From a virus: 45,727 bases of DNA. The stretch spans positions 1 to 45,727 of IMG/VR virus record IMGVR_UViG_3300025117_000110; one strand, 5' to 3'. The translations under genes and the position numbers were made by a program. The notes under the pieces are model-generated. The model saw only the letters and a program-made list of their open reading frames with translations, was not told the origin of the DNA and made no database searches. This document shows positions 2,538-39,825 of the stretch, in pieces (position 1 is the stretch's first letter; the number at the start of each line of letters is the position of its first letter).

Positions 2538-3110
2538 ATGAGAGATTTAAAGGGTAGATTTATCAAGGGAAATACAGAAGGTTTTCAAAAAGGACATCCT
2601 TGTTATAGTTATAACCTTAGGGAATGGAGTAAAAATCATACAGTTTGGAATAAAGGTGTTAAAGGTTATAAATTGTTATGTAAAAATCCAATAGAGAGAG
2701 CTTTAAAAATTTCTGAAAAATTAAAAGGCAATAAAAATTCCCTTGGTTATCATCATTCAGAAGAAGCAAAAATAAAAATAGGAGATAGCCATCGTGGAGA
2801 AAAATCTGTTCGTTGGAATCCAGATAGAGAATCTTTAAAAAGAAATAAAAGAAACGATGCAGAATATTTACGATGGGTAAAATTAGTCAAAAGAAGAGAT
2901 AAAAACTCTTGTAGGCTAAAGAATCAAGAGTGTTCTGGATATAATATAGTTCACCATATTTTAGGATGGGCTGAATATCCTGAAGAACGATATAATATTA
3001 ATAATGGCATCACATTATGCCAAGCTCATCATCCTCGCAAGAGAAATGATGAGCAAAGACTTATACCAATTCTAAAGCAATTGGTGGAGGTCAGTGAACT
3101 AATTTGTTAG
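2538..3110 (+). CDS. HNH homing endonuclease with NUMOD3-like repeats
   Basis: A 190-residue protein. The N-terminal half carries NUMOD-type DNA-binding segments (GRFIKGNTEGFQKGHPC near the start; HHSEEAKIKIGDSHRGE around 75-90). The C-terminal half is an HNH nuclease: a Cys before the H-H pair (..CSGYNIVHHILGW..), then NNGITLCQAHHPRKR. Such genes cut a cognate site in rival phages and spread by repair. It is a close paralogue of 6113-6697 and sits between the capsid gene and the next structural gene, whose start it overlaps by 7 bases. Confidence 0.85.
   Translation: MRDLKGRFIKGNTEGFQKGHPCYSYNLREWSKNHTVWNKGVKGYKLLCKNPIERALKISEKLKGNKNSLGYHHSEEAKIKIGDSHRGEKSVRWNPDRESLKRNKRNDAEYLRWVKLVKRRDKNSCRLKNQECSGYNIVHHILGWAEYPEERYNINNGITLCQAHHPRKRNDEQRLIPILKQLVEVSELIC
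2997..3021 (+). repeat. 25-base exact repeat inside the HNH paralogue (copy 1)
   Basis: Identical to 6584-6608 in the second HNH gene of this type. It encodes the NNGITLC segment around the nuclease centre. It shows recent common ancestry of the two genes. Confidence 0.8.
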
Positions 3111-6112: not shown

Positions 6113-6697
6113 ATGAGACTAAGAGACTCTAAAACGGGAAAATTCTTAAAAACAGAAAAGGTAAAAGTGATTTGTTTGTTATGTAATAAAGAATTTTTTG
6201 TTAAAGAATCTTATAGCAAAAGAGCCAAATTTTGTTCAAAAAAATGTGCTGGATGTGCAATTGGATTAAAAGGTGTTTGGATTGGTAGAAAACATACAGA
6301 AGAAAGTAAAAAGAAAATTAGTCAAAATAATGTAAGATTTTGGCTTAATAAAAAAAGACCAAATACTGCTAAAAAAGGTATAAACAGCCCTAATTGGATA
6401 AAAGATAGAAATTTATTAAAAGATGATCATAGAGATAGAAATGGTCAATTACATAGATATTGGAGTAATAGAGTAAAAATTAGAGATAATTATAGATGTA
6501 AAATAGATAATAAAAGTTGTAGTGGAAAACTAGAAGCACACCATATTCTGGGATGGTCGTTATACCCAGAATTAAGATACGAAATTAATAATGGCATCAC
6601 ATTATGCCTTGCCCATCATCCAAGAAAGAGGGCAGAAGAGAAACGACTAATTCCTTTTTTTCAGGGATTAGTGTCAGTATCAAATTCAAAAATTTGA
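6113..6697 (+). CDS. HNH homing endonuclease with N-terminal zinc ribbon
   Basis: A 194-residue protein. Residues about 20-45 form a CxxC...CxxxC zinc ribbon (CLLCNKEF ... FCSKKC), residues 50-75 a NUMOD3-like segment (GRKHTEESKKKISQNN), and the C-terminus an HNH nuclease (..CSGKLEAHHILGW.., NNGITLCLAHHPRKR). It is paralogous to 2538-3110, particularly over the last 60 residues. Its TGA overlaps the TTG start of the next structural gene (TTGA), the same arrangement as in the first copy. Confidence 0.85.
   Translation: MRLRDSKTGKFLKTEKVKVICLLCNKEFFVKESYSKRAKFCSKKCAGCAIGLKGVWIGRKHTEESKKKISQNNVRFWLNKKRPNTAKKGINSPNWIKDRNLLKDDHRDRNGQLHRYWSNRVKIRDNYRCKIDNKSCSGKLEAHHILGWSLYPELRYEINNGITLCLAHHPRKRAEEKRLIPFFQGLVSVSNSKI
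6584..6608 (+). repeat. 25-base exact repeat inside the HNH paralogue (copy 2)
   Basis: Identical to 2997-3021. The decayed HNH copy at 38571 carries a diverged version of the same segment. Confidence 0.8.
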
Positions 6698-22511: not shown

Positions 22512-23057
22512 ATGCAAAGTAGTATAAGGTTTAAAGTTTTTCAAAGAGATGGATTTATATGTCAATATTGTGGGGAAAAACCACCAAAAGCAATATTGGA
22601 GGTTGATCATATAATTCCAAAATCAAAAAATGGAAAAGATAATTTTGACAATTTAATAACTGCTTGTTTTGAATGCAATAGTGGAAAGAGTAATAAAGAC
22701 TTAAAAGATATTCCAAAAACAATAGAAAAAAATATTGAAGAAATAAAAGAGAGAAAAAAACAATTAAAAGAATTTTATAAATATCAAGAAGAAATTGAAA
22801 ATAGAAATAGTAAAATATTATTTGAAATATCTTGTTATTGGGAAGAATTGTGGGACGGAAAATATAGTTTAAATATTCGTGGCGAAGCAAATGTAAAAAT
22901 GTTTTTGAAAAATTTTGATAAAGAAGAGATTAAAGAGGGAATGGCTATTGCAAGGGGTAAAAATTTAAATGATATTGAGAGGAGTTGGAAATATTTTTGT
23001 GGAGTAATGTGGAATAAATTAAGAAATAAAAATGAAGATTATGAGAATAAAAAATAA
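22512..23057 (+). CDS. HNH endonuclease with C-terminal helical domain
   Basis: A 181-residue protein. The N-terminal 65 residues are a canonical HNH fold: CQYCGE, then VDHIIPKSKNG and DNLITACFECNSGKSN. A Lys/Glu-rich linker and a helical C-terminal domain (..GEANVKMFLKNFDKEEIKEGMAIARGK..) follow. This architecture is found in phage early regions and need not be a homing enzyme. It overlaps the next gene by 26 bases. A TATAAT abuts the ATG. Confidence 0.75.
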   Translation: MQSSIRFKVFQRDGFICQYCGEKPPKAILEVDHIIPKSKNGKDNFDNLITACFECNSGKSNKDLKDIPKTIEKNIEEIKERKKQLKEFYKYQEEIENRNSKILFEISCYWEELWDGKYSLNIRGEANVKMFLKNFDKEEIKEGMAIARGKNLNDIERSWKYFCGVMWNKLRNKNEDYENKK

Positions 23058-23848: not shown

Positions 23849-24100
23849 ATGAAGTTGTTGAGTTTAGCTAAAAAATATAATTACATTTGTTTTTGGTGTA
23901 ATGATAGATTTCTTTTAGAGGATTTAAGCCGAGATCATAAAGTTCCTCAAAATTGCAGATATAAAAATAGTGATGCTGGAAGTTGTGTTTTATCTTGCAG
24001 AGTTTGTAATAACAAAAGAGGTAATATGGATTTTGAGTATTGCAGGCAAAACAAAAAATTATTATTTAAAAAATATTCACATAAATTAAATAGATTATGA
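23849..24100 (+). CDS. Small HNH nuclease
   Basis: An 83-residue stand-alone HNH fold: CFWCND, then LSRDHKVP, then CRVCNNKRGN. It lacks extra DNA-binding domains. Its TGA overlaps the ATG of the methyltransferase remnant at 24097 (ATGA), so it was originally coupled to that methyltransferase gene. Confidence 0.65.
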   Translation: MKLLSLAKKYNYICFWCNDRFLLEDLSRDHKVPQNCRYKNSDAGSCVLSCRVCNNKRGNMDFEYCRQNKKLLFKKYSHKLNRL

Positions 24101-24174
24101 AAATATTAAACTTATATGCAGGAATAGGAGGTAATAGAAAAAGTGGTGGTAATCGTAATACAGATATGATATAA
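24097..24174 (+). pseudogene. Remnant 5' end of the C5 methyltransferase gene
   Basis: The 25-codon ORF begins MKILNLYAGIGGNRK and then leaves the homologous sequence and stops. The same peptide with one change (YCGIGG) begins the intact gene at 24640, but most codons differ in sequence (for example AGA here, CGT there). It appears to be the original start of the gene, cut off by insertion of the HNH gene at 24182. Confidence 0.75.
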
Positions 24175-24175
24175 T
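24167..24175 (+). promoter_or_regulatory. Extended -10 promoter next to an HNH start
   Basis: TGATATAAT lies six bases before the ATG of the HNH gene. The same arrangement with the same spacing occurs at 38556-38564. No -35 is visible. Transcription from it would give a leaderless or nearly leaderless mRNA. Confidence 0.6.
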
Positions 24176-24181
24176 AGAAGT

Positions 24182-24643
24182 ATGAAACAATGGTCAAGAA
24201 AATATAAAGAATGTAAGTTTTGTGGTTGCAATGCACGACCCCATAAGGGTAACGGGTTGTGTGTTAGATGTTGGGAAAGATTAGTTCGCAATAAAACTGT
24301 TAAAAGAAAAGAATGGCAAAAGGAATATAGGGTTAAAAGCATAGGGAAAATTAGAAAAAACAACGACAAATATAATCATAGTTTGAGACAAAAAGTAGTT
24401 GATTGTCTTGGTGGTAAGTGTATAAAGTGCGGATTTAACGATATAAGAGCATTACAGATAGACCATATAAATGGCGGTGGGTATCAAGAAATGAAAAATC
24501 TTTCTGCTAAACAACGCTATAAATTGGTTTTACAATCTACGCAAAACAAAGAGAAAAAATATCAACTTTTGTGTGCTAATTGTAATTGGATTAAAAGGTT
24601 TGAAGATAAAGAAGTTAAAGGGTCTCCAAGAAAATATTTATGA
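24182..24643 (+). CDS. HNH homing endonuclease inserted at the methyltransferase start
   Basis: A 153-residue protein. An N-terminal zinc ribbon (CKFCGC ... GLCVRCWERL) is followed by a basic linker and an HNH nuclease: CIKCGF, LQIDHINGGG and LLCANCNWIKR. CGN arginine codons occur here and in the gene downstream but are scarce in the region upstream. It lies between a truncated and an intact start of the same methyltransferase gene and overlaps the intact one by four bases (ATGA). Most likely it entered by homing with the downstream allele. Confidence 0.8.
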   Translation: MKQWSRKYKECKFCGCNARPHKGNGLCVRCWERLVRNKTVKRKEWQKEYRVKSIGKIRKNNDKYNHSLRQKVVDCLGGKCIKCGFNDIRALQIDHINGGGYQEMKNLSAKQRYKLVLQSTQNKEKKYQLLCANCNWIKRFEDKEVKGSPRKYL

Positions 24644-25260
24644 AAATTTTGAATTTATATTGTGGTATAGGGGGAAATCGTAAAAATTGGGGAGATGACC
24701 ACGAAATAACAGCAGTTGAAAATGTGCCAGAAATAGCAAAGATTTACCAAGACTTCTTTCCAAGGGACAAAGTTATTATTGCAGATGCACACCAATACTT
24801 ATTAGACCATTACAAGGATTTTGACTTTATATGGAGTAGTCCGCCCTGCCCGACACATAGCCGATTTAATCATTTATCAAATGTGCAAGAAGGTAAAAAG
24901 ATAAAATATCCTGATATGGAGTTATGGCAAGAGATTATATTTCTAAAACATTGGTTTAAGGGAAAATATGTTGTTGAAAATGTTATTAGTTATTACGAAC
25001 CGTTTCTACAACCGACAGAAAGTGGAAGTCATTATTTTTGGACTAACTTTGTATTTACTCCTACACCAAATATAAAAAGGGGAATAAAAAGGAAAGATGA
25101 AGAAGATTTCTTACGAGAACAACAAATGGGAATAAGTTTAGATGGATATAAATTCAAAATAAAACGGGATAGAAGAAAACTAATAAATAATTGCGTAGAA
25201 CCACAAACAGGACTCCATATTTTTCAAGAAGCATTTAGAGAATATAAAACATTATTATAA
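24640..25260 (+). CDS. C5 cytosine DNA methyltransferase-like protein
   Basis: A 206-residue protein with C5-methyltransferase motifs: motif I LYCGIGGN (residues 5-12), an acidic VENV after strand 2, motif IV SSPPCPTHSR with the catalytic Cys in PC (about 70), and motif VI VVENV (about 110). It is shorter than typical 300-400-aa enzymes and has little room for a target-recognition domain. It would methylate phage DNA against host restriction; no restriction enzyme partner is seen. Start ATG overlaps the HNH stop. Confidence 0.7.
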   Translation: MKILNLYCGIGGNRKNWGDDHEITAVENVPEIAKIYQDFFPRDKVIIADAHQYLLDHYKDFDFIWSSPPCPTHSRFNHLSNVQEGKKIKYPDMELWQEIIFLKHWFKGKYVVENVISYYEPFLQPTESGSHYFWTNFVFTPTPNIKRGIKRKDEEDFLREQQMGISLDGYKFKIKRDRRKLINNCVEPQTGLHIFQEAFREYKTLL

Positions 25261-28960: not shown

Positions 28961-29302
28961 ATGGAAAATCAAAAAGAATATAAACAACGAACAGATTTAC
29001 AAAACCGATCATTGCATAAATATTGCACTATGTTATCAGACACTCTTGTTGAAGGAGGTATAACTTATAAAAAGTTTTTAGAAATAATGGACGAAGTAGA
29101 TATGTCTCCTGAAATAGTAAAATCAGTTTTTAGAGAATATGGCAGATTAAAATATGGTAAAAAAAGTACAGCAGACTTAACAACAAAAGAGATGATGGAA
29201 ATATTTGATGAATTTACATCAAATATTTCTAAAATAGGAGTTTATGTTCCTTGGCCATCTCAAGATGAATTATACTATAAAAACAATTATAAAAACATAT
29301 GA
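28961..29302 (+). CDS. Conserved phage recombination-module protein
   Basis: A 113-residue protein with RTDLQNRSLHKYCTMLSD, ..YGKKSTADLTTKEMMEIFDEF.. and ..GVYVPWPSQ.., a pattern found in a family of small phage proteins near SSB and RecT. I do not recall its formal name; NinB-like in context. It overlaps the HNH gene by four bases (ATGA). Confidence 0.6.
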   Translation: MENQKEYKQRTDLQNRSLHKYCTMLSDTLVEGGITYKKFLEIMDEVDMSPEIVKSVFREYGRLKYGKKSTADLTTKEMMEIFDEFTSNISKIGVYVPWPSQDELYYKNNYKNI

Positions 29303-29838
29303 AATTTGAAAAAGGAAATTGTCATAATCCATATGGAAGACCAAAAGGAATTCCAATGAAACAAGAGTGGAAAGATAGAATGAGTAAAGTAAAAACTGGT
29401 ATGAAGTATAAACCTATGTCTGAAATTGGAAAACAAAATTTAAGTAAAGCACATATGGGGCAAAAAGGTTATTGGACTGGCAAAAAAAGATTACATATGA
29501 CAGGAGAAAAACATTTTGCTTGGAAAGGTGGGATAAGTAAAGATGATAGACATTATTTAAGAATTAGAAGAAATAGAAAATATAATGCAGACGGCTCACA
29601 TACTTTTGGCGAATGGGAATTATTAAAAAAACAATATGGATTTATTTGTCCATATTGTAAAAGGCAAGAACCAGAAATAAAACTTACCGAAGACCATATT
29701 ATTCCATTAAGCAAAGGTGGTTCAGATTATATTGAAAATATACAGCCATTGTGTAAAAGTTGTAATTGTAAGAAATATAATAAAATCATAGACTGGCCAT
29801 CAAACGATCAAAACAATTTTCTAGAAACCTATAAATAA
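29299..29838 (+). CDS. HNH homing endonuclease (NUMOD3-HNH)
   Basis: A 179-residue protein. An N-terminal GNCHNPYGRPKG segment and NUMOD3-like helices (..MSEIGKQNLSKAHMGQKG..) precede a canonical HNH: CPYCKR, EDHIIPLSKGG and IQPLCKSCNCKK. It is a close relative of 37484-38035 (shared ..LKK.Y.F.C..C...EPEIKLT.DHIIP.SKGG). It starts on the ATGA of the upstream gene and is followed by a strongly structured 229-base gap. Confidence 0.85.
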   Translation: MKFEKGNCHNPYGRPKGIPMKQEWKDRMSKVKTGMKYKPMSEIGKQNLSKAHMGQKGYWTGKKRLHMTGEKHFAWKGGISKDDRHYLRIRRNRKYNADGSHTFGEWELLKKQYGFICPYCKRQEPEIKLTEDHIIPLSKGGSDYIENIQPLCKSCNCKKYNKIIDWPSNDQNNFLETYK

Positions 29839-30360: not shown

Positions 30361-30909
30361 ATGTTAGATAAAAGAAAATATAATGGTTCATTTAAAAAAG
30401 GTAATAAAATAAACTTAGGAAGAAAAACATCCGAAGAAACAAAAAGAAAACAAAGTCTTAGTATGATTGGTAAAAATTTGGGAAAAAAACGCACAAAGAA
30501 AACATTGGAAAAGATGTCTATTGCACAAAGATTGGAAAAGGGACACAACTGGAAAGGAGAAAATGCTTCAGTCGCTTCGAAACACAGATGGATTATAACA
30601 TATTATGGGAATCCGCCTAAATGTGAAGATTGTGGAATGATTGGGAAAAAAACTGGTAAAATTATAAAACAATGGAATATTCAATGGTCTAATTGCGACC
30701 ATAAATATCGTAGAGTTAGAGAAGATTATAGGGGCAGATGTCAGAAATGCCATTGGAAATATGATGGTCACGCTGAAAAATTAAGTAAAATGATGAAGGG
30801 TAAAAGACCAAAGCAGTTCATAGAATATTTGACTGGTATAAATCAAACAAAGGTTAAAAATAACGGAGTGCTCAAAGCTCCCCAGTCGCCAGCTATTAGT
30901 GCGACTTAA
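30361..30909 (+). CDS. HNH homing endonuclease (NUMOD3-HNH)
   Basis: A 182-residue protein. NUMOD3-like repeats (..GRKTSEETKRKQSLSMIGKN.., ..KKTLEKMSIAQR..) are followed by an HNH variant: CEDCGMIG, WNIQWSNCDHKYRRVREDYRGRCQKCHWKYD. The final 30 residues (..NNGVLKAPQSPAISAT) are unlike the rest; their DNA forms AGTCGC/GCGACT just before the stop. It is driven by the promoter at 30257 and the interleaved leader. Confidence 0.8.
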   Translation: MLDKRKYNGSFKKGNKINLGRKTSEETKRKQSLSMIGKNLGKKRTKKTLEKMSIAQRLEKGHNWKGENASVASKHRWIITYYGNPPKCEDCGMIGKKTGKIIKQWNIQWSNCDHKYRRVREDYRGRCQKCHWKYDGHAEKLSKMMKGKRPKQFIEYLTGINQTKVKNNGVLKAPQSPAISAT

Positions 30910-33591: not shown

Positions 33592-33778
33592 AAAAGTTAG
33601 AATATTCTTTTTACAAAAATACCAAAAAGAAGATAAAAGATTACAGGAAGAGCAAAATAATATTTTAAGATGGAATACCAGATTGACTATTTGGGCTACT
33701 ATTTTTGGAGGATTGGCTATGTTGTTTCAATTTATTCAGATTATAGTAGATATAATATTAGTAAAGTTTTCAAGATGA
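33575..33778 (+). CDS. 67-aa membrane protein
   Basis: A charged N-terminal coil (..KVRIFFLQKYQKEDKRLQEEQNN..) and a C-terminal hydrophobic segment (LTIWATIFGGLAMLFQFIQIIVDIIL), one or two helices. It overlaps both neighbours; ATGA at its end starts the HNH gene. Confidence 0.5.
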   Translation: MEQQDKKVRIFFLQKYQKEDKRLQEEQNNILRWNTRLTIWATIFGGLAMLFQFIQIIVDIILVKFSR

Positions 33779-34179
33779 TAAAAAAGGATTGTAAATTCTG
33801 TAAAAAAGTATTTAGTGTTTATCCTTATAGAAGGGAAAAGGCAATTTTTTGTTCTTATAAGTGTTTAGGACAATGGAGTAAGGAAAACTTATCTGGTGGA
33901 AAAAGTCTATTATGGCAGGGCGAAAAAACAAATTATTATAATCTTCATAAAAGGTTAGTAAAATATTTTGGTCATCCCAAACAATGCGAGCATTGCGGAA
34001 AAATAGGAATAAAAGAAGGTAGAAGGTGGAATATAGAATGGGCATTAAAAAGGGGCGAAGAGTATGAATATAAGATAGAAAATTTTTTACATCTTTGTAG
34101 GTTTTGTCATAAAAAATATGATTGGGTAGATTTGGGTAATAGAAATAAACTTGGTGAATTTGTTGTTATATATGAATAA
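33775..34179 (+). CDS. HNH homing endonuclease before the CMP-nonulosonate synthetase
   Basis: A 134-residue protein from ATG 33775 (an upstream in-frame start inside the membrane gene is less likely). N-terminal zinc ribbon CKFCKK ... FCSYKC, then an HNH variant: CEHCGKIG, WNIEWALKRGEEYEYKIENFLHLCRFCHKKYD. Same type as 30361-30909. Its end overlaps the next start by 8 bases, i.e. it sits exactly at the 5' end of a metabolic gene. Confidence 0.75.
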   Translation: MIKKDCKFCKKVFSVYPYRREKAIFCSYKCLGQWSKENLSGGKSLLWQGEKTNYYNLHKRLVKYFGHPKQCEHCGKIGIKEGRRWNIEWALKRGEEYEYKIENFLHLCRFCHKKYDWVDLGNRNKLGEFVVIYE

Positions 34180-34852
34180 TATAATTTGTTTTATTCCTGC
34201 CAGGGAAGGAAGTAAGAGTGTCCCCCACAAGAACATAAGATTGCTTAATGGAAGACCACTCATAAGTTACACTATTGAGCAGGCTTTTAGGGCAGGAATA
34301 ACAAGGGTAATTGTAAATTCTGATAGTGAAAAGTATTTAGAAATTGCAAAAGAATATGGAGCAGATGTTATGTTAAGACCATCAGAATTGGCAGGAGATA
34401 AAACATCAATGTTTGAGGTTTTGAAAAATGAAATTACAAAGATTGACCCAGTGCCTGACATAGTTATGCTATTATCAGCAACAGTTCCTTTTAGGGAAAA
34501 CATAATTGTAAAATCGGCAATTTCATTTTTTATAAATAATTTAGATAAATTTGATTCTTTAATTTCAGTACAGAAAGTGCCGAATGAATATAACCCAGCA
34601 CAAGTTATTGTGAGTAGTCAATTTGGACTAATAATGGCAGATGGTAAGCAGATTAAAGATAGGATTACTTCAAGACAACAATATCCAGATGCTTATGTTA
34701 CTAGCCAAGGAATTTATATTTTTAAAACAAGCAATTTAGAAAAAGGGAGTATGTATGGGGAAAGGACAATGTTACTGGAATGCAATAAAAGTATTGATAT
34801 AAATACTTCAGAAGATTGGCAAAAATGTGAAGATTATTTAAAATCAAAATAA
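34172..34852 (+). CDS. neuA: CMP-nonulosonic acid synthetase (NeuA-like)
   Basis: A 226-residue protein with the cytidylyltransferase signature: FIPAREGSKSVPHKNIRLLNGRPLI (written in part; residues 7-30), VNSDSEKYLEIAKEYGADV, LLSATVPFR (usually LLQPTSPLR), and SIDINTSEDW near the C-terminus. It activates a sialic-acid-type sugar with CTP. An ATG at 34172 is used rather than an upstream TTG in the HNH gene. It abuts the synthase gene with no gap. Confidence 0.85.
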   Translation: MNNIICFIPAREGSKSVPHKNIRLLNGRPLISYTIEQAFRAGITRVIVNSDSEKYLEIAKEYGADVMLRPSELAGDKTSMFEVLKNEITKIDPVPDIVMLLSATVPFRENIIVKSAISFFINNLDKFDSLISVQKVPNEYNPAQVIVSSQFGLIMADGKQIKDRITSRQQYPDAYVTSQGIYIFKTSNLEKGSMYGERTMLLECNKSIDINTSEDWQKCEDYLKSK

Positions 34853-35665
34853 ATGCAAATATTAGCCGACATCGGAAAAAATTTTATAGATCACGATTGG
34901 AAAAATGGAGCAATGACGGTTCCATATTATGCAGAAAGAGCTGTAAAACTTATAAAAGAAGTAAAACCTGCAGGAGCAGATGTGGCCAAGTTTCAAACCC
35001 ATGTATTTGATGATGAAAGATATTGTAGAGATAAATCAAGACATGAATGGATTAAATTTAATGAGAGTATAACACCTATTACTTTTTGGGAAGAATTGAA
35101 AAGAGAATGTGATAGGCAAGATATTGAATTTATGACAACGCCTATGAGCAAAATGGCGGCTCAAAAAGTAAACCATTTAGTAAAACGATGGAAAGTAAGT
35201 AGTGCTGATATTACAAACTTTGACTTATTGGAATATTTAAAAAGCACAGATAAGCCAATTATACTATCAACTGGAATGAGTACCGAGCAGGAGGTGAACA
35301 TGGCAGTTAAATTTTTAGGAGAACAAATTGAACTAATAAACTATTGTGTGAGTATTTATCCTTGTCCTATTTATAAAATAAACTTAATGAATTTATTAAA
35401 ATTAGGTTCAAAATATAATTTGCCTGTAGGATTATCAGACCATAGTCTTTCAACTGAAGTTCCTGCATTGGCAGTTAAAATGGGTGCAGTTGCAATTGAG
35501 AAACATTTTACACTTGATAGGAATGCTTTTGGCCCTGATCATAAAGTATCACTTCTACCAGAAGAATTTAAACAAATGGTCGGCCTCTGCCGTTTGGCAG
35601 AAGAACAAGGTGAAAGCCTTGAAGAAGAAAAATTAAATTGGCAAAAATTTAGAATTAATAATTAA
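34853..35665 (+). CDS. neuB: Nonulosonic acid synthase (NeuB-like), no SAF domain
   Basis: A 270-residue TIM-barrel protein with NeuB motifs: GADVAKFQTH (41-50), WKVSSADITN (113-122), IILSTGMST (136-144), SIYPCP (167-172), and VGLSDHSLSTEVPALAVKMGA.. with IEKHFTLDR..GPDHKVSL (192-234). It condenses PEP with a ManNAc-type sugar. The usual C-terminal SAF (antifreeze-like) domain of about 60 residues is absent. It begins on the base after the NeuA stop. Confidence 0.85.
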   Translation: MQILADIGKNFIDHDWKNGAMTVPYYAERAVKLIKEVKPAGADVAKFQTHVFDDERYCRDKSRHEWIKFNESITPITFWEELKRECDRQDIEFMTTPMSKMAAQKVNHLVKRWKVSSADITNFDLLEYLKSTDKPIILSTGMSTEQEVNMAVKFLGEQIELINYCVSIYPCPIYKINLMNLLKLGSKYNLPVGLSDHSLSTEVPALAVKMGAVAIEKHFTLDRNAFGPDHKVSLLPEEFKQMVGLCRLAEEQGESLEEEKLNWQKFRINN

Positions 35666-35671
35666 AATATT

Positions 35672-36079
35672 ATGCTAAAAAAAACTTTTGAATAATTAAG
35701 TGAATTAGATAAAATTGTTGGTGATTTATTTAAAGAATATCCAAAATTATTAAATGGTAAATTTGGTTATACTTATACAAAATTTGCTAAAAAGAATTAT
35801 TATCCATTATTAAAAGAGCTTCAAGAAAAAATATCTGATATTAATCTGGAAAATGCAATGGTAGATGGCAAAACTAAAGAATTGCTTTATGAAGGAGAAG
35901 GTCAAGAAAAGACATATAAATATGACAAAGAGGGGGCAAAAAAAAGAAATAAAGAAAACAGAGAATTAGTTGATGAGTTTAATGAAAAAGAAGTAGAAGT
36001 TGAGCCATTTATTACAACTGATATTCCAGAAGAGTTAAGCGAATATCAAAAAGAATTATTAACAGGTTTAATTATTTAA
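35672..36079 (+). pseudogene. DUF1617-like gene broken by an in-frame stop
   Basis: From ATG 35672 the frame reads MLKKTFE, then TAA at 35693-35695, then continues without stop to 36079 (LSELDKIVGDLFKEYPKLLNGKFGYTY...; total 136 codons). The long open stretch after the stop is gene-like and reminiscent of DUF1617-type phage proteins (..NAMVDGKTKELLYEGEGQ.., ..EFNEKEVEVEPF..). Without read-through the only ATG left is 35858, giving 73 residues. Nonsense mutation, sequencing error, or a non-ATG start. Confidence 0.6.
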
Positions 36080-36083
36080 AAAT

Positions 36084-36767
36084 ATGAGTTTTGAAATTAA
36101 AAAAAATAAAGAATCGGTAATTATTTGTGCCACAGGATCGGGCTGGGAGCTTACTCCACAACAAAGTGAAAAGATTATTTATGCATTAAATGATTATGTA
36201 AATATAGAAAAATACGGTCTAAAACCAGATGTGTTATTTATAATGGATGTTTTAGACGAAAAGCCACAAATAGTTAGTAGTATAACCAATTTAGGAGAAA
36301 TTGTAATGAGGATAAATAAAATGAAAGTTCCATTAATTGCTCCATTTAAATACGAAGAGATTCCATTATCAGAAGCATTTCCAATTGAAGAGTGTGTAAA
36401 AGTATTTGGAATGCCATATTTTACAAATACAATTTGTTATATGATTGCTTATGCTTTATTAAAAGGAGCAAAAGAGATTGAATTATATGGAGTAAATCAA
36501 GCAGGATCACATGAATACACAGAAGAAAGAGGTGGTGTTGAATATTGGCTTGGTGTTGCTAATGGTTTAGGAGTAAAAATAACTATTCACGGCAAAGATA
36601 GTCAATTAATTAAATACAAAGGGAGATATGGAAACAACATTCTTTATGGTTATCTTCAAAGTTTTGAAGATATTATGATAGCAAAACAAAAATTTGGAGG
36701 AATGGTTATTAGAAAATTATTAGCACCTCAACCACCAATGTCTCGTGTGGTTAGGAAAATAAATTAA
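36084..36767 (+). CDS. DUF115-like Rossmann protein, candidate glycosyltransferase
   Basis: A 227-residue protein. Segments ..SVIICATGSGWELTP.., ..YGLKPDVLFIMDVL.., ..CYMIAYALLKGAKEIELYGVNQAGSHEYTEERGGVEYWLGVANGLGVKI.. (quoted in pieces) resemble the DUF115-type fold found in Maf flagellin nonulosonate transferases and in stand-alone phage proteins. With NeuA, NeuB and NeuC beside it, it could transfer the sugar, but it lacks the extra domains of Maf and could bind another ligand. It follows the broken gene by four bases. Confidence 0.5.
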   Translation: MSFEIKKNKESVIICATGSGWELTPQQSEKIIYALNDYVNIEKYGLKPDVLFIMDVLDEKPQIVSSITNLGEIVMRINKMKVPLIAPFKYEEIPLSEAFPIEECVKVFGMPYFTNTICYMIAYALLKGAKEIELYGVNQAGSHEYTEERGGVEYWLGVANGLGVKITIHGKDSQLIKYKGRYGNNILYGYLQSFEDIMIAKQKFGGMVIRKLLAPQPPMSRVVRKIN

Positions 36768-36768
36768 T

Positions 36769-37482
36769 ATGACACTATTACAATTATATTTACATTTTAA
36801 AAACTCTCCTGAGTCAACTTGGATTATGCAATGGCCAAATGCTCAAAGATTATATGACTTTATATTAAAAAATCCAATTGAAAGAGTTTTAGGATTAGGA
36901 ACTGGCATTGGTTTATCAGATGCGGTAATTGCTTTAGCTTGGGAGCACAAAGGAATAAAAGGACACATAGATAGTATTGAGCAATATGATAAGTGTATAA
37001 AATTAGCCAATGAATTAATTCCTGTAGAATTAAAAGAATATATTGAAATACACAAGTCAGAACCTGAAGTCTGGAGTACTCCCGAAATTCCCTATCAATT
37101 CTTTTCAGTGTATAAAACATTACCAGAACCGCCAGAGGGCGGATGGGAGCTTATCTGCAACGATGGGCCATCTCCCTTTATGGAAGGAGAAAACTATTTA
37201 GATCTTCCAAACGGAACTATTCAAAAAATGATACTTGAAGACAAAATAAAAGTCGGCATCAAAATTATTTATGACGGAAGAGTTGTTTCATTAAAAATTC
37301 TTGAAAGATATCTTGGAGACAATTTGTCATTATTATTTATTCCACCAAGAGGAGAAGATTTTGTGGTATTAGAAAGAAATGATAAACCATTAATAGTTAG
37401 AGATGATAAATTAGATGCCATGAGAAATCAAACAACATATTTTTCTCCAGCAAAGAGTATAAAAAATGAAATTATAAAATAA
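36769..37482 (+). CDS. Class I methyltransferase-like protein
   Basis: A 237-residue protein with a motif-I-like loop ([19 protein letters not shown], about 40-58), an acidic residue after strand 2 ([20 protein letters not shown]) and a later ..[12 protein letters not shown].. segment where O-methyltransferases have D-G. It starts one base after the previous stop and lies within the sugar block, so a sugar or surface-molecule methylation role is possible. Confidence 0.5.
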
Positions 37483-37483
37483 A

Positions 37484-38035
37484 ATGCCTACTGGAGTTTA
37501 TTTAAGAAACAAAAAAGATGTAAAGTATGGGATGACTGGAAAGAAAAATCCTAACGCTCATTTTAAAAAAGGACACAAACATACATTAGAAGTAATAGAA
37601 AAAATGAGTATAGCTAAAATAGGCAGTGTTTGTTCTAAAAAAACGAGAAAGAAGTTAAGTATAGCTCATAAGGGTAAAAAATTTACACAAGAACATTGTA
37701 AAAATCTAAGTGGTGCAAGATGTTATTTTTGGAAAGGTGGAATTTATAATTATGAACGAAAATTATGGCTTAATAGACAAAGGAGAATAAAAAAAGCGGG
37801 CAATGGTGGTTCTCATACTCAAGAAGAGTGGCAAAATTTAAAGAAAGAATATAATTTTATGTGTCTATGTTGTAAAAAATTTGAACCAGAAATAAAACTA
37901 ACATTAGATCATATAATTCCTATTTCAAAAGGGGGAACTGATAATATAGAAAATATTCAACCACTTTGTAGGAGTTGTAATAGTAAAAAATATAATAAGA
38001 TTTATGAAAAAGATTTTATTTCCAGCGACAAATAG
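37484..38035 (+). CDS. HNH homing endonuclease at the 5' end of the epimerase
   Basis: A 183-residue protein: NUMOD3-like repeats (..[19 protein letters not shown].., ..[13 protein letters not shown]..) and an [20 protein letters not shown] and [12 protein letters not shown]. Close paralogue of 29299-29838. It overlaps the start of the NeuC-like gene by 32 bases. Confidence 0.85.
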
Positions 38036-38558
38036 GGTTCACATAGCAAGACAGCAGATACTGTTGAGAGAGTTAAAAAATAAATTTGATGTTGATATTC
38101 AAGAATATAAGTCAGAACACAAAGACACTTTAAATGTTGTTGCAGACATTGCTAATCATTTTAGAAAAGTTTTAGATAATAAATATGATTTAGCAATTAT
38201 AAGAGGAGATAGATTTGAGATGTTGCCAATTGCAATGTTATATGCTTACAAAGGAATACCAATAGCCCACATAGAAGGAGGCGACCAAAGTGGTGCAATT
38301 GATAATAAGGTTAGATATGCTATAACAAGTTTATCAGATATACACTTTTCTACAAATAAAGAGAGCTTTAAGAGATTAATATCAATGGGAACAGATCCAG
38401 ATTTGACATTTAATTTTGGAAGCTTGGATGTTTCTTACGCAAAAACTGTATTGCCTAAAAGGTTAATTGAAGAACCTTATATTATTGTCTGTCACCATCC
38501 AATGCTTAACGAGGATGTAAAAGTATTAGAAAAGGTTTTAAAGGAATTTGAAAAGTGA
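38004..38558 (+). CDS. neuC: UDP-GlcNAc 2-epimerase (NeuC-like), N-terminal part
   Basis: 184 residues matching the N-terminal Rossmann domain of hydrolysing UDP-GlcNAc 2-epimerases: [12 protein letters not shown] (4-15), [54 protein letters not shown]. It continues into the start of the second domain (PYIIVCHHP) and stops at TGA 38556-38558. The rest of the enzyme is at 38723-39082. NeuC makes ManNAc for NeuB. The two parts might assemble. Confidence 0.75.
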
Positions 38559-38564
38559 TATAAT
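38556..38564 (+). promoter_or_regulatory. Extended -10 promoter before the HNH remnant
   Basis: TGATATAAT, six bases before ATG 38571, identical in motif and spacing to 24167-24175. Its TGA is also the premature stop of the NeuC-like gene. Confidence 0.6.
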
Positions 38565-38570
38565 AATAGT

Positions 38571-38726
38571 ATGGGATTTAAAAAAGGACACAAAATGTTT
38601 TCAGTTATATTTATAGAGAGTAAGGTTAAAACACTAGAAGATGCTGAAAACTATCAAGAGTTTTGGAATATAAATAATGGCAGAACATTATGTAAAAATT
38701 GTCATAGAAACACCCTTAAATTATGA
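38571..38726 (+). pseudogene. Decayed mini-HNH gene inside the epimerase
   Basis: A 51-residue ORF that joins an HNH-gene start (MGFKKGHK) to an HNH-gene end (WNINNGRTLCKNCHRNT) without the nuclease body, as expected after an internal deletion. The end resembles the genes at 2538 and 6113 (NINNGITLC..). Its stop overlaps the ATG of the second epimerase fragment (ATGA). Confidence 0.7.
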
Positions 38727-39082
38727 AGTATAAAATTATCAGAATAAAATCTAATTCAGACAACGGAACACCTTACGGAAGTGAGGAATACTCTTCAGAG
38801 GATTATATTAATCTTTTAAGATACGCCTCTTGTCTTATCGGTAATAGTTCTTCATTTTTAAAAGAATCATCAATTTTTGGAACACCCGTAGTGAATATCG
38901 GGAAAAGGCAACAAAATAGATTAACTTCAGAAAATGTAGTAAGCGTGCCATTTGATAAAAATAAAATAAGAACTGCAATAAGAATGCAATTAGATTCAGA
39001 AAGAAAACCATCAAAGATATATTATAAACCAGCAACAAGCTATAATATTGTGCAAGAAATAAGTAAATTTTTAAAAGTATGA
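38723..39082 (+). CDS. neuC: UDP-GlcNAc 2-epimerase (NeuC-like), C-terminal part
   Basis: 119 residues corresponding to the end of the family: YASCLIGNSSSFLKESSIFGTPVVNIGKRQQNR (in part; about 30-62) is the typical 'GNSSS...E....G.P.VNIG.RQ..R' motif of the UDP-binding second domain. The ATG lies on the ATGA overlap with the remnant, so it could be translated by coupling. The next gene starts on an ATGA overlap. Confidence 0.75.
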   Translation: MKYKIIRIKSNSDNGTPYGSEEYSSEDYINLLRYASCLIGNSSSFLKESSIFGTPVVNIGKRQQNRLTSENVVSVPFDKNKIRTAIRMQLDSERKPSKIYYKPATSYNIVQEISKFLKV

Positions 39083-39825
39083 AACATTTAGTTATTGGTA
39101 CAGGTGAAGTAGGAACAGCAATAAGTAAGATATTTCAATGTGATATTGTTGGTAAAGTTGAATCATTCAATAGTAATTTTAGTTTTGACATTATCCATAT
39201 TTGTTTTCCTTATTCAGAAGACTTTATTGACGAAGTAAAACGATACCAAGAGTTATATAAAGTAAAATATACGATTATACATAGTACAGTTCCAGTCGGT
39301 ACATCAAGAAAGTTAAATGCAATTCACAGTCCTATATTAGGAATACATCCGTATTTAGAAGAAAGTATTAAAACATTTACTAAATATTTAGGTGGAGAAA
39401 ATGCAAGCGAGGTAGCTGATGAATTTAGAAGAGCAGGAATGAAGGTTTATATTACAGATAAATCAGAAACAACAGAACTAATGAAAATATTATGCACTAC
39501 TAAATATGGATTAGATATTGAATGGGTAAAAGATGTTAAAGATCAATGCAATAAATACAAAGTTCCATTTGAATTTTATTCACTATGGACAGATAATTAC
39601 AATATGGGTTATAATAAATTAGGGCAATCACAATTTACAAGACCAAACTTGATTCCTATTAAAGGAAAAATAAAAGGTCATTGTGTAAGGCCAAATTTAG
39701 AATTATTAGAAACAAAATTTACTAAATTATTAAAAGAATTTATTATGGATACAGAAACAAAACAAGAAGAACCAAAAGAAATTATTGATCCAGCAGAAGC
39801 AAATGTTTGCGATGCTTGTGCTTAG
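39079..39825 (+). CDS. Nucleotide-sugar dehydrogenase-like protein
   Basis: A 248-residue protein with an N-terminal Rossmann motif (KHLVIGTGEVGTAISK) and ..DIIHICFPYSEDFIDEVKRY.., ..YTIIHSTVPVGTSRKL.. as in UDP-glucose/GDP-mannose dehydrogenases ('ST(V)PVGT'). It is shorter than a full enzyme (about 400+) and lacks the catalytic Cys region I would expect, but ends in a separate acidic tail with CDACA. Last gene of the sugar block. Confidence 0.6.
   Translation: MKHLVIGTGEVGTAISKIFQCDIVGKVESFNSNFSFDIIHICFPYSEDFIDEVKRYQELYKVKYTIIHSTVPVGTSRKLNAIHSPILGIHPYLEESIKTFTKYLGGENASEVADEFRRAGMKVYITDKSETTELMKILCTTKYGLDIEWVKDVKDQCNKYKVPFEFYSLWTDNYNMGYNKLGQSQFTRPNLIPIKGKIKGHCVRPNLELLETKFTKLLKEFIMDTETKQEEPKEIIDPAEANVCDACA

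What the first reader, a model, noticed from the sequence alone, without database searches (positions are those of the whole stretch)
24097..25260. HNH gene between a truncated and a recoded start of one methyltransferase gene
The first 15 residues of the methyltransferase occur twice with one amino-acid change but many silent codon changes (AGA versus CGT and others). The HNH gene lies between the copies. This fits homing in which the incoming element brought a diverged downstream allele and left a stub of the resident gene, making the site resistant to cleavage.
Basis: partly seen in the sequence, partly recalled or inferred. Interest (0 to 1): 0.8.

Follow-up and report, generated by a model that had tools for sequence, protein, structure and literature searches.

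The report
Endonuclease gene carrying recoded gene end
A DNA-cutting gene in this phage sits between a leftover stub of a methyltransferase gene and a differently spelled working copy, and close relatives of the cutter elsewhere show how this arises: it copies itself into the end of a gene and brings a respelled version of that end, a natural parallel to engineered 'home-and-rescue' gene drives.

Summary
Stub 24097-24174 (MKILNLYAGIGGNRK then 10 unrelated codons and a stop), HNH gene 24182-24643, full C5-methyltransferase 24640-25260. The 15-codon repeat has 14/15 identical residues, 11/45 nt changes and 7 silent codon changes.

No empty-site allele of this locus was found. HNH relatives of the same family show the same anatomy at other genes, and two have near-identical empty alleles. 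L166 versus L289: 667-bp insert; flanks 99.5% and 99.9%. L107 versus L336: 410-bp insert; right flank 2536/2536 bp and left flank 170/172 bp identical. In both, the empty allele has one gene, the displaced end in the occupied allele is the resident sequence exactly, and the working end arrived with the HNH, recoded (TerL: 8 of 13 codons, one residue) or foreign. More cases hit the 5' ends of L381, L170 and L211 genes, the 3' ends of L111 and L169 genes, and other HNH types (L242, L363, L380).

Best reading: homing with co-conversion that replaces a gene end and leaves a stub, so the target is split on both sides. Known in fungal mitochondria; I found no phage report in the library searched. 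Cleavage is untested.

The parts
23849..24100 (+). small HNH-like ORF just upstream; its TGA overlaps the stub's ATG (resident neighbour of the interrupted gene)
   Evidence: Pfam HNH E=0.0014, below the curated cut-off
24097..24174 (+). displaced 5' stub of a resident methyltransferase gene: 15 homologous codons, then 10 unrelated codons and a stop
   Evidence: codons 1-15 only 3 nt from the intact L060 gene start
24142..24181 (+). left junction and leader between stub homology and HNH start; stub stop lies 7 nt before the HNH ATG
   Evidence: reinitiation is an inference
24182..24643 (+). free-standing HNH endonuclease, 153 aa, family motif CxxCGFxDxRALQIDHI..YQLLCANCNWIK
   Evidence: PHROG HNH endonuclease E=1e-9; catalytic DH and Cys residues invariant in 28 relatives; model mean pLDDT 89
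24640..24684 (+). recoded copy of the first 15 codons (7 silent changes, Ala8 to Cys8)
24640..25260 (+). intact C5 cytosine methyltransferase gene (PPCPTHS, ENV motifs), start overlaps HNH stop
   Evidence: Pfam PF00145 E=4e-7; 77 further viral loci with relatives

Best explanation
The HNH gene is a free-standing homing endonuclease that entered the 5' end of a resident methyltransferase gene by cleavage and recombination, together with a diverged copy of that gene's start (or the whole gene). The resident first 15 codons were left as a stub. The working gene now starts with the recoded copy, translationally coupled to the HNH stop. Because the uninterrupted target spans the insertion point, it is destroyed on both sides: the stub keeps only its left part, and the working copy has that part rewritten. 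The occupied genome is therefore immune to its own enzyme while the gene stays functional. Shown here: anatomy in the window; insertion of gene end plus HNH, with empty alleles, at two sister loci. Inferred: cleavage, immunity, and that the window arose the same way.
For: Window anatomy. Two empty/occupied pairs of the same HNH family. L166 versus L289: 667-bp insert between 12-bp CAACTATAAAAT repeats; the stub equals the empty allele's first 35 residues; the gene body equals the empty allele. L107 versus L336: 410-bp insert; right flank 2536/2536, left 170/172; displaced TerL end identical to the empty allele; in-use end changed in 8 of 13 codons (stop included) with one residue changed. Occupied alleles are in more than one contig (L092/L093/L260, L107/L108). 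Further cases: L381, L111, L169, L170, L211, L242, L363, L380. Over 12 cases, 56 of 95 conserved degenerate codons differ silently. Excess over mismatched-locus nulls: 10 loci at p<=0.02 versus 2.5 expected; gene-terminus scores >=46 5 versus 0.83 expected; 4.3% of HNH-like genes versus 0.8% of 2134 other ORFs. No intron RNA found.
Against: No empty-site relative of this phage was found. The first 15 codons of the working gene are only mildly more diverged from relatives than the rest predicts (residual -0.039, second lowest of 18), so local recoding is not proven. The remainder of the resident gene (codon 16 on) is not visible, so hybrid gene versus whole-gene replacement is open. Only a minority of the family's ~130 loci show a detectable displaced end. 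Several short matches (9 residues in L170, L211) are individually weak.
Confidence: 0.8

Rival explanations
1. Deletion relic: the ancestor had two tandem methyltransferase genes; the first was deleted down to 15 codons and an HNH gene happened to land in the gap.
For: Tandem full methyltransferases of two subtypes exist in L026 and L004.
Against: Those loci are distant and lack the HNH. The empty alleles of two sister HNH loci have one gene each and differ only by the insert. The same stub-HNH-gene order recurs at unrelated genes (TerL, scaffold-like, terS-like), which independent deletions would not give.
Confidence: 0.1
2. Group I intron with an HNH ORF: exon 1 (codons 1-15) is spliced to codon 16 and the second start is fortuitous.
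For: The offset of the two copies, 543 nt, is a multiple of three.
Against: No Rfam intron match here or in sister loci; an intron would not need an in-frame recoded second start with its own ATG; in L169 the HNH is on the opposite strand and in L111, L170 and L211 it is fused to the displaced end.
Confidence: 0.03
3. The HNH nuclease and the methyltransferase form a restriction-modification pair, and the stub is accidental.
For: Overlapping genes, nuclease next to a C5 methyltransferase.
Against: A motif scan found no HNH gene next to the methyltransferase in any of the other 77 loci; the nuclease's relatives lie beside TerL, scaffold-like, terS-like and other genes.
Confidence: 0.04
4. Whole-gene replacement (a variant of the main reading, overlapping with it): a complete foreign methyltransferase came with the HNH and the resident body was lost.
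For: 4 of 10 methyltransferase Arg codons are CGN against 15 of 205 in ten other window genes.
Against: In both resolved sister cases the gene body is resident and only the end is foreign.
Confidence: 0.35

Closest known systems
Mobile-ORF gene hybrids in fungal mitochondria (Glomus atp6, atp9, cox2, nad3; Allomyces atp6; PMC3630166)
   Same: Endonuclease ORF inserted near a gene end, foreign gene end in use, native end displaced behind it; many differences silent; native end matches the uninterrupted relative.
   Different: Fungal elements encode LAGLIDADG or GIY-YIG enzymes and replace 3' ends. Here HNH enzymes in phages, at both 5' and 3' ends, with empty/occupied pairs at about 99% or higher flank identity.
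Free-standing homing endonucleases of T4-like phages, including split genes by mobE and mobA (PMC2988022)
   Same: Intron-less phage endonuclease genes spread by cleavage and repair with co-conversion of flanks.
   Different: There the gene is split into two used pieces or the endonuclease is intergenic; here the end is duplicated and the displaced piece is left as a stub. The passages read do not describe recoded ends.
Lactococcal Skunavirus HNH endonucleases (PMC12724721)
   Same: Free-standing phage HNH genes at many insertion sites, site linked to phylogeny, marker exclusion shown.
   Different: No displaced gene ends in the passages read.
Synthetic home-and-rescue gene drive (HomeR, PMC7968924)
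   Same: Nuclease inserted in a needed gene together with a recoded copy of the target that restores function and resists cutting (from the abstract and own knowledge).
   Different: Engineered Cas9 in insects; an analogy of logic only.
Integrative elements that replace gene 3' ends (e14/phage 21 in icd; from own knowledge)
   Same: Element supplies a new gene end and displaces the old one.
   Different: Integrase-driven; the 410- and 667-bp inserts here hold only an HNH gene and a gene end.

Membership tests
Free-standing HNH homing endonuclease | HNH nuclease motif and catalytic residues | tested here: met
   model folds confidently but best PDB matches, HNH enzymes among them, are not significant
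Free-standing HNH homing endonuclease | Not inside an intron or intein | tested here: met
   methyltransferase ORF complete without splicing
Free-standing HNH homing endonuclease | Allele without the nuclease gene exists at the same site | tested here: inconclusive
   met for sister loci L166/L289 and L107/L336; none found for the window
Free-standing HNH homing endonuclease | Cuts the empty allele, spares the occupied one | not testable with these tools
   needs enzyme assay
Fungal mitochondrial mORF gene-hybrid element | Gene end duplicated around an endonuclease ORF, displaced copy resident | tested here: met
   duplication in window; resident identity shown in sister loci only
Fungal mitochondrial mORF gene-hybrid element | LAGLIDADG or GIY-YIG endonuclease in mitochondrial DNA | tested here: not met
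   HNH enzyme in a virus record
Group I intron homing | Self-splicing intron around the ORF | tested here: not met
   no Rfam match
Restriction-modification system | Conserved nuclease-methyltransferase pairing | tested here: not met

The most novel reading that the evidence does not exclude
Phage free-standing HNH endonucleases of several types commonly spread as natural 'home-and-rescue' units: they target the first or last codons of phage genes (terminase, scaffold-like, methyltransferase) and carry a synonymously recoded gene end that keeps the gene working and makes the occupied site uncuttable.
Probability: 0.55. Interest if true: 0.78.

Novelty: new variant of a known kind. Interest (0 to 1): 0.62.

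Why it matters
It explains how an intron-less selfish nuclease can live inside the end of a needed gene without harming its host and without cutting itself. It makes the question directly testable, because natural empty and occupied alleles that differ by only 410 or 667 bp are now in hand. It is also a natural counterpart of the recoded-rescue trick used in engineered gene drives, and a simple signature (displaced gene end, HNH gene, recoded end) for finding active homing nucleases and their target sites in phage genomes. Synonymous recoding seen next to such genes need not mean ordinary divergence.

Tried and rejected
Near DNA search in GenBank phages gave no match and RecT as a synteny anchor found only the same phage, so no empty site for the window. 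L136 looked like a case but its flanks are two intact tRNA-Ile genes. High scores in GC-rich loci (L206, L214, L163, L232) are Arg-rich frame artefacts or tandem paralogues. L185/L124 is suggestive only. No relatives for the L169 gene or the L381 gene in phages. GenBank hits of the HNH (L402-L405) added no further case. HNH-flank tests on other HNH genes of the window gave nothing by one method; one search flagged a weak second case at 29299-29838. The idea that the methyltransferase 5' end is uniquely recoded relative to its body was tested and is only mildly supported. Foldseek gave no significant PDB match.

Full report
OBSERVATION. The window is a single virus record of 45,727 bp, 31% G+C. 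The described structure is present at the stated coordinates. A 25-codon ORF (24097-24174) begins MKILNLYAGIGGNRK and then leaves homology. It is followed after 7 nt by a 153-aa HNH ORF (24182-24643), whose stop overlaps the ATG of a 206-aa C5 methyltransferase (24640-25260; PF00145) that begins MKILNLYCGIGGNRK. The two starts share 14/15 residues and 34/45 nt; 7 of the 8 changed codons are silent. The in-gene AGA to CGT change is notable because CGT is rare in this phage. The similarity (score 80) exceeds every GC-matched mismatched pair of flanks (maximum 54). The stub is nearer in sequence to intact methyltransferase starts of other phages (3 nt from L060, 5 from L021 and L002) than to the phage's own gene (11). 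A second contig, L001, supports the HNH-methyltransferase junction.

WHAT IT IS. I could not find an uninterrupted allele of this locus, so I asked whether the HNH family does this elsewhere. The family is defined by CxxCGFxDxRALQIDHI...YQLLCANCNWIK. It was collected from IMG/VR and GTDB genomes: about 130 distinct genes, 125 of them with usable flanks. Several members have the same anatomy at unrelated genes. At 5' ends: L166/L092, a gene between portal and capsid, scaffold-like by position; L381; and L170 and L211, terS-like by position (the L170 gene lies just before a terminase-like gene), where the displaced start is fused to the HNH and provides its first codons. At 3' ends: L107/L108 and L111, terminase large subunit (PHROG match for L111); and L169, where a deoxyribosyltransferase-like gene (Pfam PF15891) lies on the strand opposite to the HNH. 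HNH genes of other types do the same: L363 and L380 (Pfam HNH_3) and L242 (Pfam, where L242 had no match; it is called HNH from its motif).

EMPTY SITES. Two sister loci have near-identical alleles without the HNH. (a) L289 versus L166: flanks 99.5% and 99.9% identical; L166 has an extra 667 bp between two copies of CAACTATAAAAT. The stub MAEKIDDQNILKSEVDGEKYPKLFKATELAGNYKI is exactly the start of the single gene in L289, and the body of the working gene in L166 is the L289 body. The first 46 residues of the working gene are foreign and came with the HNH, together with its leader; they resemble the gene of L315. (b) L336 versus L107: a 410-bp insert; right flank 2536/2536 nt, left 170/172. The displaced end AAG GCG TTC AAG GGC GGC GTA GTC TCA GTC GAG ATT TGA is the L336 terL end. 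The end now in use reads AAG GCG TTC CGT GGA GGA GTA GTT TCT GTC GAA ATC TAA: one residue changed, seven silent changes including the stop. Occupied alleles are in independent contigs (L092/L093/L260; L107/L108), so assembly errors are unlikely. In neither case was there a tandem duplicate before the insertion.

IS IT MORE THAN CHANCE ACROSS THE FAMILY? Own flanks versus GC-matched flanks of other loci: 10 of 125 loci at p<=0.02 against 2.5 expected. Gene-terminus test: five matches scoring >=46 against 0.83 expected and three >=50 against none. HNH-like genes 6/139 (4.3%) against 18/2134 (0.8%) other ORFs of similar size. At least two of those 18 'control' hits are themselves HNH genes that the motif filter missed (L242; window 29299), and several others are tandem paralogues, so the contrast is understated. 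Some high scores in GC-rich loci are artefacts and were set aside.

MECHANISM. Most likely the HNH cleaves the uninterrupted gene near the insertion point, and repair from an HNH-bearing genome copies the HNH plus an altered gene end. The altered end restores the protein. The target is split: one half stays in the stub, and the corresponding half in the working gene is rewritten. The stub also keeps the resident start region (ATG overlapping the upstream stop) in front of the HNH, which may help its translation; in L170 and L211 the stub is in frame with the HNH. Shown: anatomy, insertion, identity of the displaced end to the resident allele, foreign or recoded ends (sister loci). Inferred: cutting, immunity, and the same history for the window. 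Not resolved: whether the window's methyltransferase is a hybrid or wholly foreign. Its first 15 codons are only slightly more diverged than expected, while 4/10 of its Arg codons are CGN against 15/205 in ten other genes.

RIVALS. Deletion of a tandem duplicate: tandem methyltransferases do exist in distant phages (L026, L004), but the sister empty alleles and the recurrence at unrelated genes speak against it. Group I intron: no match in Rfam. Restriction-modification pair: no HNH partner found by motif scan in 77 other methyltransferase loci.

KNOWN OR NEW. Gene hybrids with duplicated 3' ends around LAGLIDADG or GIY-YIG mobile ORFs are known in fungal mitochondria (PMC3630166). T4-type free-standing endonucleases can split genes (PMC2988022). 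In the full-text searches made I found no description of phage HNH genes that carry recoded gene ends; most subscription papers are not in that library, so this is not proof of absence. I file it as a new variant of a known kind: it works like the fungal elements but is not a member of that enzyme class.

Noticed in passing
window 28961-29838: Possible second case in the same phage: a NinB-like gene (28961-29302; PHROG 72) ends ..VPWPSQDELYYKNNYKNI*, and the overlapping HNH gene (29299-29838) ends ..IDWPSNDQNNFLETYK*, a tail that its sister HNH at 37484-38035 lacks.
   Followed up: partly
window 2538-3110, 6113-6697, 22512-23057, 23849-24100, 29299-29838, 30361-30909, 33670-34179, 37484-38035: The phage carries many HNH or HNH-like genes scattered through most of its modules, several with NUMOD-like or zinc-finger-like N-termini.
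   Followed up: partly
window 38004-39082: A gene resembling UDP-GlcNAc 2-epimerase appears split into two ORFs (38004-38558 and 38723-39082) directly after an HNH gene whose end overlaps its start.
   Followed up: no
window 34151-39825: Cluster resembling sialic-acid-type sugar genes (CMP-sugar synthetase-like, NeuB-like synthase, epimerase-like) in a phage, just before terminase and portal-like genes.
   Followed up: no
L026:2385-3651; L004:2337-3624: Tandem full-length methyltransferases of two subtypes (YSGIGGNR or YAGIGGNR type and YACLGGNRY type) with no HNH gene between them.
   Followed up: partly
L242:8776-9234 (minus strand), L363:8858-9451, L380:9914-10450: HNH genes outside the CANCNWIK family that also lie between a working gene end and a displaced, respelled copy, suggesting that the habit is not limited to one HNH family.
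   Followed up: partly
L136:2946-3363: HNH of the same family sits between two intact tRNA-Ile genes (GAT and TAT anticodons) in a tRNA-rich phage.
   Followed up: yes
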